This document shows positions 2-6,411 of a stretch of 6,411 nt of DNA, in pieces. The DNA comes from JAUWCW01 sp030609125 [NCBI: Candidatus Rokuibacteriota bacterium] (GTDB lineage: Bacteria; JAUVQV01). Under the pieces are notes generated by a model. The model was not told the origin of the DNA. It saw only the letters and a list, made by a program, of their open reading frames with translations, and searched no databases. Numbering within the stretch: position 1 is the stretch's first letter; each line of letters opens with the position of its first letter. The stretch is taken from contig JAUWCW010000116.1 in NCBI GenBank assembly GCA_030609125.1, positions 1-6,411 of the forward strand, in the 5' to 3' direction. The translations under genes were made by a program, and so were the position numbers.

Positions 2-2137
2 AACCCGAAGGCGTGCGGCATGTTCGGATACTCCGCCGGGGAGTTCTTGCGGTTGCGCCGCGAGGACCTGCTCGACGCATCCAGTGCCGTCTCGAGGGAG
101 GCCGCGGCCCAGAGAGAGAGGACGGGAAGGTTCTCCGGCCAGCTGCCTTACAGGCGCAAGGACGGATCGGTCTTCACCGGTGAAGTCAACGCGCAGTCCT
201 TCAAGGATCGCCAAGGAAACGATCGGGTGAGCATCGTTGTGTCCGATGTTAGCGAGCGGCTCCGGGCGGAAAGCCTGGTCAGGATCCAGCGTGACCTTGC
301 GGCAGCCCTGGCCTCGGTGACGACACTCGAGGAAGGGCTGGCGGTCTGCCTGGACACGGCAATTGAGCTCTCGGACATGGACTCCGGCGGGATTTATCTC
401 ACTGATGCAGAGACCGGCACGTTTGACCTTGCCACCCACAAGAACCTCTCTCCCGGGTTTGTCGACGGTGTCAGAAGCTACGGTCCCGACTCGGCTCAGG
501 CGAAGCTGGTCGGCAAAGGGGTGCCCCACTTCACGGACTTTGAGAGCCTGCCCGCCCCCATAGTTAGTCCCGTGGCGAAGGAGGGGCTGAAAGCGCTCGC
601 TGTTCTGCCGATACTCCATGACAACCGCACCGTCGGCTGCATGAACATATCATCGCGGGGCGCCGTTGACATTTCGGTTTCCTCCCGGGAGGCCCTGGAA
701 TCCATCGCGTCCCAGGTCGGCAGCGCCATTGCGAGGCTCAGGGCGGAGAAGGCGCTGCGCGAGAGCGAGAGGAAATACCGCCAGCTCATCATGAATATCC
801 CGGTTGTCACCTGGACCTCCGACAGTGAGGGGAACACAGTCTTCATCAGCCCCAACGTGACCGGGGTTTACGGTTTCACCCCGGCGGAGATCTACGAGAG
901 CGGCGACGAACTTTTTATGGGGAGGATACACCCCGAGGATAGGAAGAGGATTGAGGGCGCCTATAGGGCCCTCTTTGAAGAGGACGCCGACTTCGACGTC
1001 GAGTACCGGATCAGGCACAAGGACGGAACGTGGATCTGGATTCGAGACCGGGCGTATTCCCGCAGGGAGGAGGGAGGACACTCCTTCGCCGTAGGCGTCT
1101 TCCACGATATAACGGAGCGCAAGAAGGCGAAAGAGGCCCTTCAGGAGGGCGAAGAGCGCTACCGCAGCCTGGTGGAGCAGCTGAAAGAGCTCATCTTCAC
1201 CGTCTCCAAGGACGGGGTCTTCACCTTCGTCAACGGGGCCATCGAAACGCTCACCGGCTGGTCAACGGACGATGTTGTCGGCAAGCCCTTTTCCGACATC
1301 GTCCACCCCGAAGATCTTCCCCTCGTCAGGGAGCGGTTCAAGCGGGTTCTCGGCGGCGAGAATATGCCTGACAACGAACTGCGGCTCAAGATGAAGTCGG
1401 GGACGATGAAGAACTTCGAGTACACCTCGAGCCGCTTGTTCCGGAAAGGGGAGGTGATCGGGGTCTGGGGGGTGGCGAGGGACGTCTCGGACCGCAAGAG
1501 GGTTGAAGAGGACCGCCGCAACCTCATCGCCCTCAGGGAGAGGGAGGGGATCAGCCGCTGGCTGCACGACAACCTCGGGGCGGACCTTTACAACATCATA
1601 CTCCTCGCCGACAGCATCCAGAAGCAGGAGCCCGGGTCGTCGGTCTTCACCCAGCAGATCGACTGGATTACGGAGACGTCGAGAAAGAGTCTGGCGAGCA
1701 TAAGAAACTACCTCGATTTCGCCAGTCAGACGGGGTTCTCCTTCGAGGGCCTGGTGGCTCACATGGAGGAGTACGGGAAGTCCCTGCTGAACCCCCTGGG
1801 CATTCAGTTGCATTTCGAGCAGGAGGGGGACATGGCCCGGTGCGGCCTCTCCGGCGTCCAGATCTTCAGCATCTACCTCATCTTCAAGGAATCCCTGACG
1901 AACATCGTCAAGCACGCCCGGGCTTCCCGCGTGACCGTGAGTGTTTCGGTGAAGGAAGGGAGGCTGGAACTGGCCATCGAGGACGACGGGAAGGGATTCA
2001 CCGCCGACGCCGTTCTCTCCGGAAAGTTCGGGACGACCAATCTGAGGGCCCGTGCCGACGAGCTCGGCGCGGACCTTCGCGTCAATACCAGTCCCCGCAA
2101 GGGCACCAGGGTGGACTTTTCACTGCCGCTTCAGTAG
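2..2137 (+). CDS. PAS-GAF-PAS-PAS sensor histidine kinase, NarX/DegS-like (HisKA_3), 5' partial
   Basis: This is a sensor kinase expected to autophosphorylate on histidine and pass the phosphate to a NarL-type regulator, most likely the one encoded next. The frame is open to the window edge, and the residues before the first ATG (NPKACG, then MFGYSAGEF) are the middle of a PAS domain. The ATG at 20 is therefore internal and the N-terminus is missing. Numbered from that Met, the domains are: end of PAS1 to about 87, GAF about 88-243, PAS2 about 246-373, PAS3 about 374-495, HisKA_3 about 500-575, and HATPase about 605-705. The phosphoacceptor is H516 in WLHDNLG. The N box is ESLTNIVKHA with N628, and the G1 box is DDGKGF at 655-660. 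A GTTNLRARADELGADL segment and a terminal GTRVDFSLP complete the ATPase fold. No membrane segment is visible in this part, so the sensed signal is probably cytoplasmic and may bind GAF or PAS. The ligand cannot be read from the sequence. Confidence 0.93.
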   Translation, partial: NPKACGMFGYSAGEFLRLRREDLLDASSAVSREAAAQRERTGRFSGQLPYRRKDGSVFTGEVNAQSFKDRQGNDRVSIVVSDVSERLRAESLVRIQRDLAAALASVTTLEEGLAVCLDTAIELSDMDSGGIYLTDAETGTFDLATHKNLSPGFVDGVRSYGPDSAQAKLVGKGVPHFTDFESLPAPIVSPVAKEGLKALAVLPILHDNRTVGCMNISSRGAVDISVSSREALESIASQVGSAIARLRAEKALRESERKYRQLIMNIPVVTWTSDSEGNTVFISPNVTGVYGFTPAEIYESGDELFMGRIHPEDRKRIEGAYRALFEEDADFDVEYRIRHKDGTWIWIRDRAYSRREEGGHSFAVGVFHDITERKKAKEALQEGEERYRSLVEQLKELIFTVSKDGVFTFVNGAIETLTGWSTDDVVGKPFSDIVHPEDLPLVRERFKRVLGGENMPDNELRLKMKSGTMKNFEYTSSRLFRKGEVIGVWGVARDVSDRKRVEEDRRNLIALREREGISRWLHDNLGADLYNIILLADSIQKQEPGSSVFTQQIDWITETSRKSLASIRNYLDFASQTGFSFEGLVAHMEEYGKSLLNPLGIQLHFEQEGDMARCGLSGVQIFSIYLIFKESLTNIVKHARASRVTVSVSVKEGRLELAIEDDGKGFTADAVLSGKFGTTNLRARADELGADLRVNTSPRKGTRVDFSLPLQ

Positions 2138-2310: not shown

Positions 2311-2943
2311 ATGAAGACAAAAGTGGCGATTGTGGAAGACCATGAAAAGACCAGGGAGTATCTGGCGGCCCTCTTCGGAGGTTCCGACGGCATCGAGCTT
2401 CTGGGCGTGTTCGGGACCGGGCAGGAAGCCCTGCAGAGTCTTCCCGAGCTGCTGCCCGACGTTCTCATCGTCGACATCAACCTGCCGGACATGTCCGGGA
2501 TAGACATCATCAGGGTCATGCGAGAGAGGGCCCCCCGCATGGAGATACTGGTTCTGACGATCCACGAGAACAGGGAGCACCTCTTCCTTGCGCTGCAGGC
2601 CGGCGCCACCGGTTATCTTGTGAAAGGAACACCCTCCACGGAGATCATCAACGCCGTTTCCATGCTGATGGCCGGCGGGGCGCCCATGTCCCCCGTGGTG
2701 GCGCGCTACGTCATCGAGGAGTTCCAGGATGTCAAGGGAGCGCGCGAATCCTCAGCCCTGACAAAGCGGGAGCGGGAGGTTTTGCAGGGGGTCGCCTCGG
2801 GTCTTTCGGAGAAAAAACTCGCCGACACCCTCTCCCTGAGCCCTCACACGGTCCACACCCACATCAAGAAGATCTACCGCAAGCTGCAGGTCAATTCCAG
2901 AGCCGAGGCTGTGCTGAAGGCCCGGAACAAGGGCATCGTCTGA
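2311..2943 (+). CDS. NarL/FixJ-family response regulator (REC + LuxR HTH)
   Basis: This is a 210-residue DNA-binding response regulator and probably the phosphorylation partner of the upstream HisKA_3 kinase, a class that normally pairs with NarL-type regulators. The receiver domain (about 3-120) has the acidic pocket E9-D10, phosphoacceptor D55 in LIVDINLPDMSG, the switch residue T83 and the conserved K105 in YLVKG, so it should be phosphorylatable. The LuxR-type HTH occupies about 149-210 (LTKREREVL, then the recognition helix around SPHTVHTHIKKIYRKL). Length and domain order are normal for the family. The ATG at 2311 is supported by GAGGGG at 2299-2304, six bases upstream, and by the receiver beginning at residue 4. 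Target genes cannot be told from sequence. The arsenic cassette downstream has its own promoter-like element, so co-transcription is not required. Confidence 0.95.
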   Translation: MKTKVAIVEDHEKTREYLAALFGGSDGIELLGVFGTGQEALQSLPELLPDVLIVDINLPDMSGIDIIRVMRERAPRMEILVLTIHENREHLFLALQAGATGYLVKGTPSTEIINAVSMLMAGGAPMSPVVARYVIEEFQDVKGARESSALTKREREVLQGVASGLSEKKLADTLSLSPHTVHTHIKKIYRKLQVNSRAEAVLKARNKGIV

Positions 2944-2963
2944 ACGCCTCAGGCACTGCCGGC

Positions 2964-2992
2964 TTGCCAGGACTCGGGTCGCGCAGTACACT
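2964..2992 (+). promoter_or_regulatory. Putative sigma70 promoter of the arsenic cassette
   Basis: TTGCCA (2964-2969, five of six -35 bases) and TACACT (2987-2992, four of six -10 bases) are separated by exactly 17 bp. Initiation near 2999 would leave a leader of about 22 bases containing the Shine-Dalgarno AGGTGA (3009-3014) of the next gene. CTTGCC occurs twice, at 2963-2968 and 2991-2996, flanking the promoter core. It is the best promoter candidate in the window, but it is a sequence match only. Confidence 0.55.
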
Positions 2993-3021
2993 TGCCCCCG
3001 TGATCGAGAGGTGACCTTCCC

Positions 3022-3372
3022 ATGAAGAATACGGGGGCGGGAAAGCGCGGCGAAAAGAGCCTTCCGCGAACGTGCGGTAAGGCGCAGCGTCTGCTGGTCA
3101 AGTACTACGGCACGGATAATCTCGCCTCCCTGAGCAAGGCCTCCGGGATATCCCGATCCACTCTTGCCTACTGGAAATCCTGCCCTGAGGCGAGAATGAG
3201 AAAGAACGGCTACCGGCATCTCCAGCGAATATTCGGCGGCGGTGCTTCCGACGATGCCGCCCGACACCTGCAGAACAGCAATCCCAACGTGATGGCCCTG
3301 CTGGAGGTCTTCCAGGAGGTGAGGGACGTTCTCTCCAGAATCGAGCAGAGACTCCTTCGCATGTATTCGTGA
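3022..3372 (+). CDS. Small helix-turn-helix protein of unknown family, candidate regulator of the arsenic genes
   Basis: I do not recognise a named family for this 116-residue protein. The first 30 residues are basic. A helix-turn-helix is visible at about 32-56: DNLASLSKASGISRSTLAYW has the A-x3-G-I-S-x-S-T-L-x-x-W spacing of Xre/resolvase-like HTH units. The C-terminal helix (about 89-114) carries hydrophobic residues every three to four positions (V90, L94, F97, V100, L104, I107, L111), consistent with a dimerising coiled coil. It is not a winged-helix ArsR and lacks the CVC metalloid site; its only cysteines are C18 and C54. The ATG at 3022 has AGGTGA seven bases upstream and a promoter-like element before that. 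As first gene of the cassette it may regulate arsC-acr3. That role is inferred from position and the HTH. Confidence 0.75.
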   Translation: MKNTGAGKRGEKSLPRTCGKAQRLLVKYYGTDNLASLSKASGISRSTLAYWKSCPEARMRKNGYRHLQRIFGGGASDDAARHLQNSNPNVMALLEVFQEVRDVLSRIEQRLLRMYS

Positions 3373-3382
3373 GGTCCTCCGA

Positions 3383-3408
3383 GGTCCCTTCCGTCGGCGA
3401 AAGGGACC
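3383..3408 (+). repeat. Hairpin GGTCCCTT-N10-AAGGGACC upstream of arsC
   Basis: Perfect 8-bp complementary arms at 3383-3390 and 3401-3408 enclose a 10-base loop. The hairpin lies in the gap between the HTH gene and the chosen arsC ATG and ends 11 bases before that codon. It sequesters AAGGGA, the only nearby Shine-Dalgarno-like stretch not touching the start codon. No T-run follows, so it is not an obvious terminator. It could modulate arsC translation or mRNA processing; this is inference. The direct repeat GAGGTCC (3371-3377 and 3381-3387) overlaps its left edge. Confidence 0.45.
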
Positions 3409-3419
3409 GCCCGGGGGGG

Positions 3420-3881
3420 ATGCCCCAAGGTAAAAAAATCAGGGTGCTCTTTCTCTGCACCGGCAACTCATGCCGCAGCCAGATGGCTGAAGGGTGGGCG
3501 AGGGCGCTGAAGGGGGGCAGGATCGATGCCTGGTCTGCCGGAATCGAGAAGCACGGTCTCAATCCGGCGGCGGTGAGAGTGATGGCCGAGGCGGGTGTGG
3601 ACATCTCGCGGCAGAGATCGAAGACTCTCGACGAGGTGGGGGACGTGCGGTTCGACTACGTCGTGACCGTCTGCGGCCACGCCGGGGAGAGCTGCCCGGT
3701 CTTCCCCGGCGGGGCGAAGGTCGTTTACCGGGGCTTCGACGATCCGCCGAGGCTGGCCGAAAACGCCGCCACCGAGGAAGAGGCGCTGGGGCACTACCGT
3801 CGGGTCAGGGACGAGATCCGCGCCTTCGTGGAGGAGCTGCCGGAGGCGCTGGAAGTCGAACAGGGAAGGATGTTTCCGTGA
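3420..3881 (+). CDS. arsC: Arsenate reductase, thioredoxin-coupled (LMW-phosphatase fold)
   Basis: This cytoplasmic enzyme reduces arsenate to arsenite through a cysteine relay, with thioredoxin as usual electron donor. The 153-residue product has the whole signature of the pI258-type family: the P-loop CTGNSCRS (C13, R19) followed by QMAEGW, then SAGIE and GFDDPP (D107 in the general-acid position). The two redox cysteines are C85 in VTVC and C92 in ESCP. C13, C85 and C92 correspond to the family's catalytic triad, so it should be active as a reductase rather than as a plain tyrosine phosphatase. I chose the ATG at 3420 because the conserved strand KKIRVLFLC follows at once. The alternative GTG at 3369 overlaps the previous stop codon (GTGA) and would add 17 non-conserved residues; neither start has a good ribosome site. 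The stop overlaps acr3 by four bases. Confidence 0.93.
3863..3870 (+). promoter_or_regulatory. Ribosome binding site GGGAAGGA deciding the acr3 start
   Basis: A strong purine-rich Shine-Dalgarno lies inside the end of arsC, seven bases before the GTG at 3878. It favours that GTG over the second in-frame GTG at 3884 and over far-upstream starts inside arsC. Together with the GTGA overlap it indicates translational coupling. Confidence 0.65.
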
Positions 3882-4963
3882 CAGTGCCGCGCCGGCTCTC
3901 GTTTCTCGACCGCTTTCTCACCCTCTGGATATTCCTCGCCATGTTCGTCGGGGTCATGGGGGGCTACCTCTTTCCCGGCGTCCGGTCGGTCATAGACTTC
4001 TTCCAGGTCGGCACCACCAATATCCCCATCGCCGCGGGGCTCATCCTCATGATGTACCCCCCGCTGGCAAAGGTGAAATACGAGGAGATGGGGCGCGTCT
4101 TCCGCGACGCCAGGGTCCTCTCCCTGTCGCTCGTGCAGAACTGGGTCATCGGCCCGGTCCTGATGTTCCTCCTGGCCGTCGCCTTTCTCTCCGGACACCA
4201 GGAGTACATGGTGGGCCTCATCCTTATCGGCCTGGCCCGCTGCATCGCCATGGTCATTGTCTGGAACGACCTGGCCGCCGGAGACCGCGAGTACTGTGCC
4301 GGCCTGGTGGCCTTCAATTCCATCTTCCAGGTGCTCTTCTTCTCGATTTACGCGTACGTCTTCATCACCGTCCTGCCCGGGTGGTTCGGGCTCGAGGGAG
4401 TGGTGGTGGATATCTCCATCGGCGAGATTGCAGGAACGGTCTTCATCTACCTGGGCATACCCTTTCTCGCCGGCATCGTCTCCCGCATTCTGGGCCTGAA
4501 GCTGAAGGGGCGGCAGTGGTATGAGGAGCGCTTCATCCCGCGCATCGCCCCCCTGACGCTCATCGCCCTGCTGTTCACCATCGTGGTCATGTTCTCACTC
4601 AAGGGAGAGCACATCGTTCAGCTGCCTCTCGACGTTCTGCGCATTGCAGTTCCCCTCTGCATCTACTTCGTGGCGATGTTCTTCGTCTCTTTCCGGCTCT
4701 CCATGAAGGCCGGGGCGACCTACGAGCAGTCGACGACCCTGAGCTTCACCGCCGCCTCGAACAACTTCGAGCTCGCCATAGCGGTGGCGGTGGCGGTCTT
4801 CGGGCTGGACTCCGGCCAGGCTTTCGCCGCCGTGGTCGGCCCGCTGGTGGAAGTGCCCGTTCTCATCGGGCTGGTGAACGTGGCGGTCTGGTTCAAGAGA
4901 AAATACTTTCCCTACGCCGTGGAAACCCCGACGGGGGTCTGCCATCTCACGTGCGAGCCCTGA
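3878..4963 (+). CDS. acr3: ACR3-family arsenite efflux permease (often annotated arsB)
   Basis: This inner-membrane carrier exports arsenite, completing detoxification of the arsenite made by ArsC. The 361-residue product is normal for ACR3 and shows about ten hydrophobic segments, from [16 protein letters not shown] near residue 15 to the last at about 310-335. Family landmarks are clear: [21 protein letters not shown] early, [16 protein letters not shown] with the conserved cysteine C122, and SNNFELAIA with glutamate E298. In characterised Acr3 proteins the equivalent cysteine and glutamate are needed for transport. The frame stays open upstream inside arsC to 3494, but that part is an arsC shadow without membrane character. 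The GTG at 3878 overlaps the arsC stop as GTGA and has GGGAAGGA seven bases before it. One oddity is the C-terminal tail VCHLTCEP, which carries two closely spaced cysteines (C355, C359). Confidence 0.95.
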
Positions 4964-4988
4964 GGGCCCCCACGCGCCGGGCCCTTGG
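4960..4988 (+). terminator. Weak terminator-like hairpin at the acr3 stop
   Basis: AGGGCCC (4963-4969) pairs perfectly with GGGCCCT (4979-4985) around a 9-base loop, and wobble pairs extend the stem into the TGA stop codon. No T-run follows, so a canonical intrinsic terminator is not shown. It could still stabilise the 3' end or act with Rho. Confidence 0.35.
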
Positions 4989-5029
4989 TCTCTCCGCAAA
5001 TGGCGCCCCTACCCCCGGCCTCGTCCGTC

Positions 5030-5057
5030 CCGCGGCCTGTCGCGGCTGATTCTATTT
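5030..5057 (+). terminator. Possible second terminator: CCGCG-N6-CGCGG, then T-rich tail
   Basis: A 5-bp all-GC stem (5030-5034 with 5041-5045) and 6-base loop are followed after four bases by a T-rich stretch, TTCTATTT at 5050-5057. The stem is short and the T-run is interrupted and displaced, so this is only a candidate end for the arsenic transcript. Confidence 0.3.
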
Positions 5058-5061
5058 GAGG

Positions 5062-5080
5062 CAAGGCGGCTTCAGCCTTG
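5062..5080. repeat. Inverted repeat CAAGGC-N7-GCCTTG overlapping a -35 box
   Basis: Perfect 6-bp arms (5062-5067 and 5075-5080) flank GGCTTCA. The right arm includes the TTG of the TTGACA box at 5078-5083, so a protein bound here would contact the promoter. It may be an operator or a chance hairpin in GC-rich DNA. Confidence 0.3.
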
Positions 5081-5106
5081 ACAGCCCCCTGCACGTGCGC
5101 TTACAT
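5078..5106 (+). promoter_or_regulatory. Putative promoter of the GAF-GAF-GGDEF gene
   Basis: A perfect TTGACA (5078-5083) is followed after 17 bp by TTACAT (5101-5106, three of six -10 bases). TACATA one base later is an equal alternative. The spacer contains the palindrome GCACGTGC (5091-5098). Transcription would begin around 5112-5114, essentially on the ATG at 5114. Confidence 0.5.
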
Positions 5107-5113
5107 AGTCCCC

Positions 5114-6411
5114 ATGGCACGGAAGAGCAGGGTAGCTTTCGAATCCGAGGTCAGCCGGATTCTGGAGTCGGCTGAAGCTGTGGATCTCAAGGTCCGCCGT
5201 TTTACCGGGCAGCTGTCTGACTTTCTGGAGAACGCATCGGTATCGGTGTATCTTTACGAGCCGGAGGCGGAAGAGCTCTTTCTCAAGAGCACCAGTCGGA
5301 CAGTCAGCTCTGAGGCGAAGGCGTTCCGGTTCGCCGCCGCCGGCACGATCCCCTCGCTCGCCATCCACGAGAGACGGACGGTGTCTCTGCAGGAGATCAA
5401 GCGCCCGGAGGGGAGCTCCATGGGGGCGGGCTACCATGTGTTTCCCATGCGGGAGGAAGAGGTCATTCTGGGGGTCGTGACCATAGAGCATGTGGCGCCG
5501 AAGAGTCTCGGGGTGATCCAGCTTGACGTGGCGCGCAGAGCGGTCAAGCAGCTCTCCGGCATTGTCGGCAAGGCCAGGAGCGAGGCGGAGCAGTCGATGC
5601 TGATGGCCAAGGTCTCCGCCATCAACGAGGCCGGAATCACCCTCGTGTCGCACAAGGATCTTTCCGAACTGCTCAAGATCTCCACGGCGGTGATGTCTCT
5701 CATCATGGGCGCTGGAAGCTGCATCATCCGAACCTATGACGAGGCAACCGACGGCTACGTCCCCGGCGACTGCTACGGTCTCTCCGATCCGGAGTTGCGG
5801 AAAAACGTGCTGAGCCTTGACCTCCTCGTCAACCGGGAGGTCGTGGAGAGAGGAAAGCCCGTGCTGGTGAGGGACCTTTCCCGAAGAGAAGACCTGAAGG
5901 AATATGCCGGCCTGGTTCGGACTCTCATCTGTCATCCGCTCAAGGCGCAAGGGGACATCGTCGGGACGATGACCATCTTCAACAAGAGCACCGGCAACAC
6001 CTTCACGCCGCCGTATTTTACGGAAAGGGACCTGGGGGACATGGCCCGACTGTCGAAGTATGTCGAGACGGCAATAGTCGAAGCCATGGACCATGACCGG
6101 GTGTGTGGGATTCAGGAGCGGGACGAAATGACGGGGCTGCCGAACATGAGGCAGTTCGAATCGCGGCTCCGGGCCGAGATAAGTCGAGCCCGGCGGTTTG
6201 ACAGCAAGATGGTCATCCTCACCTGCGAGACGAACCTGCGCCAGAACGGCGAGAGTCTCAAGTCCAGAAACCAATTTCAGAAAATGATGAGGAAAGTGGT
6301 GGAGGCCATCGAGAGCTCCCTCCGCGAGTACGATATCATCGCCGCGATGGACGAGGGGAGGTTCATCATGATCCTCCCCCAGGCCGAGGACGGCACCGTG
6401 AGCGCCACCGT
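5114..6411 (+). CDS. GAF-GAF-GGDEF-fold signalling protein with degenerate catalytic motifs, 3' partial
   Basis: The frame is open from 5114 to the right edge (432 codons seen, no stop). GAF1 is about residues 20-150 and GAF2 about 165-325. A GGDEF-type domain starts near 330 with the familiar entry RDEMTGLPNMRQFESRL (TGLPN at 340-344). No membrane segment is seen, so it is probably a cytoplasmic sensor. The domain departs sharply from active diguanylate cyclases. Where family members have the metal-binding D-x-D-x-FK segment this protein has CETNLR (371-376), and the GGDEF signature is replaced by DEGRF (413-417). Cyclic-di-GMP synthesis is therefore unlikely; nucleotide binding or protein contact is possible. 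The ATG at 5114 has no Shine-Dalgarno, an in-frame stop lies at 5057, and a promoter-like element ends eight bases upstream, suggesting a leaderless mRNA. An EAL or other domain could follow beyond the window. Confidence 0.88.
   Translation, partial: MARKSRVAFESEVSRILESAEAVDLKVRRFTGQLSDFLENASVSVYLYEPEAEELFLKSTSRTVSSEAKAFRFAAAGTIPSLAIHERRTVSLQEIKRPEGSSMGAGYHVFPMREEEVILGVVTIEHVAPKSLGVIQLDVARRAVKQLSGIVGKARSEAEQSMLMAKVSAINEAGITLVSHKDLSELLKISTAVMSLIMGAGSCIIRTYDEATDGYVPGDCYGLSDPELRKNVLSLDLLVNREVVERGKPVLVRDLSRREDLKEYAGLVRTLICHPLKAQGDIVGTMTIFNKSTGNTFTPPYFTERDLGDMARLSKYVETAIVEAMDHDRVCGIQERDEMTGLPNMRQFESRLRAEISRARRFDSKMVILTCETNLRQNGESLKSRNQFQKMMRKVVEAIESSLREYDIIAAMDEGRFIMILPQAEDGTVSAT

What the first reader, a model, noticed from the sequence alone, without database searches (positions are those of the whole stretch)
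3022..3372. Unfamiliar HTH protein in the regulator position of an ArsR-less arsenic cassette
The cassette has its own promoter-like element, then this 116-residue HTH plus coiled-coil protein, then arsC and acr3. No ArsR winged helix or CVC metalloid site is present in the window. Either this is a different type of arsenic regulator (two cysteines, C18 and C54, are available) or it controls something else and sits here by chance.
Basis: inference. Interest (0 to 1): 0.6.

Follow-up and report, generated by a model that had tools for sequence, protein, structure and literature searches.

The report
Orphan DNA-binding gene beside arsenic genes
A small, unclassified DNA-binding protein sits just in front of two arsenic-detoxification genes where the usual arsenic sensor is missing; it is a real gene, but its only relative found lies away from arsenic genes, so a role in sensing arsenic is possible but unproven.

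Summary
Window 3022-3372 (+) encodes a real 116-aa helix-turn-helix protein with a C-terminal helix, followed on the same strand by an arsC-like gene (3420-3881) and a clear acr3 (3878-4963). No ArsR was found on the contig. The rest of the genome (92% complete) has one gene over the ArsR metalloregulator cut-off, on another contig beside tusA; neither it nor a second, marginal place has a CxC motif. A sister genome has a CVC-type ArsR on its acr3 contig.

The arsenic-sensor reading is weakly supported. One relative was found: a paralogue in the same genome (58% identity, both cysteines kept), between a glycosyltransferase and a DUF6566/HlyU-like gene. ArsR-less acr3 loci are not rare (13 of 60 fetched). 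No inverted repeat above chance lies in 2944-3021. A 26-bp one lies between the HTH gene and arsC; its GGGAC core recurs inverted before the paralogue, a post hoc lead.

I favour a lineage-restricted local regulator, probably XRE/lambda-repressor-like, that heads the HTH-arsC-acr3 row. Arsenic sensing through C18/C54 is a minority reading. Interest is modest.

The parts
3022..3372 (+). 116-aa helix-turn-helix protein with a C-terminal helix (P0001); C18 and C54 are its only cysteines
   Evidence: coding; AF2 helices; no family over a curated cut-off; PHROGs has none
3420..3881 (+). arsC-like arsenate reductase, thioredoxin-type by best match; CTGNSCR loop and CGHAGESC pair
   Evidence: LMWPc 61.6 bits, cut-off 23.2; TIGR02691 146.9 bits, below its 174.3 cut-off; sequence
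3878..4963 (+). acr3 arsenite efflux transporter; GTG start overlaps the arsC stop
   Evidence: TIGR00832 454.9 bits, cut-off 282.8; only acr3 found in this genome
2964..2992 (+). sigma-70-like promoter match TTGCCA-17-TACACT
   Evidence: 1 found, shuffles mean 0.3; consensus match only
3383..3408 (.). 26-bp imperfect inverted repeat GGTCCCTTCCG-TCGG-CGAAAGGGACC between the HTH stop and the arsC start: candidate operator or RNA hairpin
   Evidence: 32 of 1000 shuffles do as well; two equally strong or stronger repeats lie inside genes of the window; only inverted GGGAC/GTCCC pair within 45 bp in the window; RNA fold z only -0.38
2311..2943 (+). LuxR/NarL-type response regulator upstream, 78 bp before the HTH gene; rival controller
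2..2137 (+). PAS/GAF histidine kinase (HisKA_3 + HATPase), cut by the contig start

Best explanation
The protein is a small DNA-binding regulator with a three-helix HTH core, most like the XRE/lambda-repressor arrangement, and a C-terminal helix that probably makes it a dimer. It belongs to a two-member family found only in this genome, and each member lies just before a same-strand gene of different kind. In the window it most likely acts locally, binding near its own unit (the inverted repeat at 3383-3408 is the best candidate site) and setting expression of arsC-acr3. Shown: the coding gene, its place, the paralogue, no CVC-type ArsR found. Inferred: dimer, DNA binding, target and sign of regulation. 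What signal it answers, arsenite or another, is open.
For: Coding signal and paralogue. HTH core with pLDDT about 88-93 over residues 11-40 and a C-terminal helix with pLDDT 83-89 over 81-100 in the paralogue model. Weak but concordant leads to lambda-repressor-like proteins: Pfam Xre-MbcA-ParS_M and Phage_CI_repr, below cut-off; Foldseek HipB, N15 Cro, SinR, P22 c2, not significant; phrog_409 'transcriptional regulator', E 0.0027 over residues 26-60. First gene before arsC, 47 bp away, same strand. The paralogue lies 27 bp before a DUF6566/HlyU-like gene, with three copies of TGGGACGG upstream (10 of 2000 shuffles hold any 8-mer three times). Inverted GGGAC/GTCCC pairs lie beside both: the window's only one is in the HTH-arsC gap, and two lie before the paralogue; 34 of 5476 background segments of the gap's length hold one.
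Against: No fold match is significant (best Foldseek E 0.32 in PDB, 0.27 in BFVD; no VIA Z of 5 or more), and the helices after the HTH core are of low confidence. The paralogue has no PHROGs match. 2944-3021 has no inverted repeat above chance. Local alignment of the two genes' upstream DNA is no better than shuffles, although the two HTH helices are almost identical. The GGGAC core was picked after seeing the data, and 9 of the 12 such pairs in 38.5 kb lie elsewhere. The hairpin's RNA energy is ordinary.
Confidence: 0.45

Rival explanations
1. Bystander: the HTH protein controls genes elsewhere or only itself, and arsC-acr3 is constitutive, read through from upstream, or controlled in trans.
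For: The only relative is not near arsenic genes. None of the 60 fetched acr3 loci holds a relative of the protein. 13 of those 60 had no ArsR-type gene in the fetched DNA, and 3 of the 29 with arsC within 3 kb and at least 5 kb on both sides; read by eye among ORFs of 80 codons or more, the 13 showed no small HTH directly in front, though one has a response-regulator-like ORF about 360 bp off. No inverted repeat above chance in 2944-3021.
Against: Same strand, 47-bp gap, first-gene position. A sister genome has a CVC-type ArsR on its acr3 contig, so ars genes are probably regulated in this order.
Confidence: 0.3
2. Arsenite-sensing repressor of a non-ArsR kind: the dimer blocks the cassette, As(III) binds C18/C54 thiolates and releases it.
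For: Regulator position and no CVC-type ArsR found in the genome. Both cysteines kept in the paralogue.
Against: The paralogue with the same cysteines lies away from arsenic genes. Joint conservation of two residues is expected about one time in three. No operator visible in 2944-3021. No precedent in the listings seen.
Confidence: 0.15
3. The upstream histidine kinase/response regulator pair controls the row, and the HTH protein is an accessory.
For: HK and LuxR-type RR lie directly upstream on the same strand, RR stop to HTH start 78 bp; neither of the two terminator-like sites found is in that gap.
Against: A promoter-like site lies in that gap. PAS/GAF kinases are general sensors (recalled). 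In the part of the sister ars contig read by eye no such pair was seen.
Confidence: 0.1

Closest known systems
arsR-arsC-acr3 operons with ArsR/SmtB repressors
   Same: Small HTH gene in front of arsC and acr3 on one strand
   Different: No ArsR winged helix (no HTH_5 match at E<=1), no CVC; the sister genome has the usual ArsR with GELCVC
XRE / lambda-repressor-like HTH regulators (HipB, N15 Cro, SinR, P22 c2; Pfam Phage_CI_repr, Xre-MbcA-ParS)
   Same: HTH core in AF2 models; among the top, non-significant structure matches
   Different: No family over cut-off; helices after the HTH core are uncertain; no relative outside this genome found in these searches
MerR-type metal regulators
   Same: Weak HTH match, E 0.15; HTH plus C-terminal helix
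   Different: 12.4 bits against a 28.2 cut-off; extra helix before the HTH in the AF2 models

Membership tests
ArsR/SmtB | HTH_5 / HTH_metalloreg winged-helix match | tested here: not met
   No such match at E<=1 in Pfam or at E<=0.1 in NCBIfam; the window contig is not listed
ArsR/SmtB | CVC-type As(III) site | tested here: not met
   Sequence: only C18 and C54, 36 residues apart
XRE / lambda-repressor-like HTH | Pfam/NCBIfam HTH match over cut-off | tested here: not met
   Only sub-threshold Pfam matches; none in NCBIfam
XRE / lambda-repressor-like HTH | Fold of the DNA-binding domain | tested here: inconclusive
   Foldseek best E 0.32; VIA Z 4.9 or less
MerR | MerR HTH match over cut-off | tested here: not met
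   12.4 bits against 28.2
Acr3 | TIGR00832 over cut-off | tested here: met
   454.9 against 282.8 bits
ArsC, thioredoxin type | TIGR02691 over cut-off | tested here: not met
   146.9 against 174.3 bits, though the best match; called arsC-like here
ArsC, thioredoxin type | CX5R loop plus C-x6-C pair (motif recalled, from no call) | tested here: met
   CTGNSCR and CGHAGESC in the translation
Arsenic-responsive regulator | Binding to the cassette DNA released by As(III) | not testable with these tools
   Needs a bench assay

The most novel reading that the evidence does not exclude
A new class of arsenite-responsive repressor with a lambda-repressor-like HTH and a two-cysteine site has replaced ArsR in this lineage, acting at the inverted repeat between its own gene and arsC.
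Probability: 0.13. Interest if true: 0.65.

Novelty: new member of a known kind. Interest (0 to 1): 0.3.

Why it matters
If the protein answers to arsenite, it would be an arsenic sensor outside the ArsR/SmtB family, useful for biosensors and for understanding how regulators are swapped on detoxification genes. If not, it is an ordinary lineage-specific regulator next to an ArsR-less arsC-acr3 pair.

Tried and rejected
Searches for relatives that gave none: genome contigs with the single protein (31 pattern stretches, none confirmed) and with the pair alignment (30 stretches); viral contigs twice (8 and 192 stretches); phages; plasmids (one match in a RepC gene, E 0.5, dismissed); 60 genomes with the single protein (the own genome only); two other phyla with close RpoB, 5 and 12 genomes, none; the 60 acr3 loci. 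In 386 genomes with the pair profile, four others gave E 0.003-0.009; three of these read through stop codons and the fourth covers only residues 34-72, so I dropped them as chance or generic HTH. The contig scans need exact short peptides, so distant relatives could be missed. In the sister genome, four matches at E 0.3-5.3 were taken as noise.

A shared operator by local alignment of the upstream regions: six comparisons, none better than shuffles. TGGGACGG with up to one mismatch is not enriched in the window (4 found, mean 9.7 expected); exact copies on the paralogue's contig number five, two of them elsewhere. RNA folds: z -0.38, -1.19, -1.17. PDB sequence search with the pair: one chance match, E 2.2. 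A Fer2_3 match of the paralogue (E 0.025, 15 bits against 27) was treated as chance.

Structure searches: the window model has mean pLDDT 59.9 and the paralogue 72.0, each from two sequences; all matches are non-significant. No absence is claimed from them.

The acr3 survey: 60 places in 59 genomes, taken from the first 69 rows of the score-ranked list (150 genomes with a match), not at random; the window's own row was left out and eight rows were passed over (G377, G349, G318, G268, G384, G121, G192, G292). ArsR was found by a home-made profile seeded with two proteins and iterated on the same ORFs, E below 1e-4; 17 of 60 loci have under 5 kb on one side. Neighbours of the 13 ArsR-less loci were read by eye among ORFs of at least 80 codons, not profile-searched. 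A fragment of a second acr3 at a contig start in the sister genome (fetched) was not examined.

Full report
What is there. The window is the whole of contig C130 of a genome of 2.3 Mb in 376 contigs, 92% complete. The main genes run on the + strand: a PAS/GAF histidine kinase (2-2137), a LuxR-type response regulator (2311-2943), the 116-aa HTH protein (3022-3372), an arsC-like gene (3420-3881), acr3 (3878-4963) and a GAF-GGDEF gene running off the end. Acr3 is clear at 454.9 bits against a cut-off of 282.8. ArsC's best match is the thioredoxin-type arsenate reductase, 146.9 bits, under the curated 174.3.

The HTH gene is real. A paralogue in the same genome (C121:5784-6095) is 58% identical. 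The codons differ mostly at third positions (34/30/60), with dN 0.40 against dS 1.89. Both cysteines are kept, but 60 of 103 aligned residues are kept overall, so this says little about a metal site.

What kind of protein. No Pfam or NCBIfam family reaches its cut-off. The best hints are phrog_409 'transcriptional regulator' (E 0.0027; none for the paralogue) and sub-threshold XRE/phage-repressor models. AF2 on only two sequences gives mean pLDDT 59.9 for the window protein and 72.0 for the paralogue, where residues 11-40, the HTH core, reach about 88-93 and a C-terminal helix spans 77-102; residues between are at about 50-60. Foldseek's top PDB hits for the window model are HipB chains, with N15 Cro, SinR and P22 c2 lower, none significant (similar for the paralogue); VIA gives no Z of 5 or more. 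I read it as an XRE/lambda-repressor-like HTH plus a dimer helix, by inference.

Where relatives are. Only the paralogue was found. It lies between a glycosyltransferase (4267-5658) and a DUF6566/HlyU-like gene (6123-6362), with a LysE/RhtB-like gene (weak match) and a TrmFO-like gene (name by recall) beyond; no arsenic gene was seen among the ORFs of that 16.4-kb contig (by eye). None of 59 other genomes, 5 and 12 genomes of two other phyla, 60 acr3 loci or the contig, phage and plasmid collections gave a convincing relative; four weak matches among 386 genomes were dropped. The phylum holds only two genomes here; RpoB of the other is 74% identical, the next by score 62-63%.

Is the cassette really without ArsR? 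In this genome one gene passes the ArsR metalloregulator cut-off (C174, beside tusA; nearest named models PagR, TsoR and BigR, below their cut-offs), and a second place, on C238, just passes HTH_5 only. Neither has a CxC motif. About 8% of the genome may be missing. The sister genome has one full acr3, on a contig that also holds an ArsR with GELCVC and an LMWPc-type ArsC-like gene and an ArsA-like ORF (by eye). In 60 fetched acr3 loci from 59 genomes, 47 had an ArsR-type gene and 13 did not. Among 29 with arsC within 3 kb and at least 5 kb on both sides, 3 had none. So ArsR-less arsC-acr3 pairs are a minority but not strange.

Control DNA. The promoter-like site 2964-2992 matches 9 of 12 consensus bases (1 found, 0.3 expected). 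The stretch 2944-3021 has no inverted repeat above chance (982 of 1000 shuffles). The HTH-arsC gap has a 26-bp imperfect inverted repeat, 3383-3408 (32 of 1000 shuffles, one of four gaps tested); two others as strong or stronger lie inside genes of the window, at 3676-3715 and 6355-6379. The paralogue's upstream DNA has three copies of TGGGACGG (10 of 2000 shuffles). Both share the core GGGAC in inverted pairs; the window's only pair is the one in the gap, 34 of 5476 background segments and 62 of 5000 shuffles of the gap hold one, and 9 of 12 pairs in the 38.5 kb examined lie elsewhere. The core was chosen after looking, and full local alignments show nothing, so this is a lead, not evidence of a common operator.

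Literature. Search listings only, plus passages of one paper. 'arsenic resistance' + 'XRE family' + 'acr3' gave one paper, on Pseudomonas biofilm genotypes; 'ars operon' + 'XRE' + 'arsenite' + 'regulator' gave one, on Cupriavidus metal resistance. In three wider searches (15 of 180, 15 of 15 and 15 of 40 papers listed) no listed title names an XRE-type arsenic regulator. Of PMC6205960 I saw three passages, which treat ArsR as the ars regulator. These searches cover open-licence papers only.

Judgement. The gene and its place are confirmed. The most likely role is a lineage-specific local regulator. A specific arsenic sensor is possible, at about 0.15, but nothing here shows it, and the one relative found points away from it.

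Noticed in passing
L015:5663-5753 (G000:C121, upstream of the paralogue): Three exact copies of TGGGACGG, the middle one reversed, within about 90 bp before the paralogue's start; a possible operator array or RNA hairpin.
   Followed up: partly
G000:C174:514-738 (L008, L024): The genome's only gene over the ArsR metalloregulator cut-off lies next to tusA; nearest named models include TsoR and BigR, below their cut-offs, so possibly a sulfur-linked regulator.
   Followed up: partly
L032 (G001:C316): The sister genome's acr3 contig also has ArsR (GELCVC) and an ArsC-like gene, a DsbD_TM-type gene, and, by eye, ArsA-like, ArsD-like, permease-like and thioredoxin-like ORFs.
   Followed up: partly
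window 5114-6411: GAF-GGDEF gene directly after acr3, cut by the contig end.
   Followed up: no
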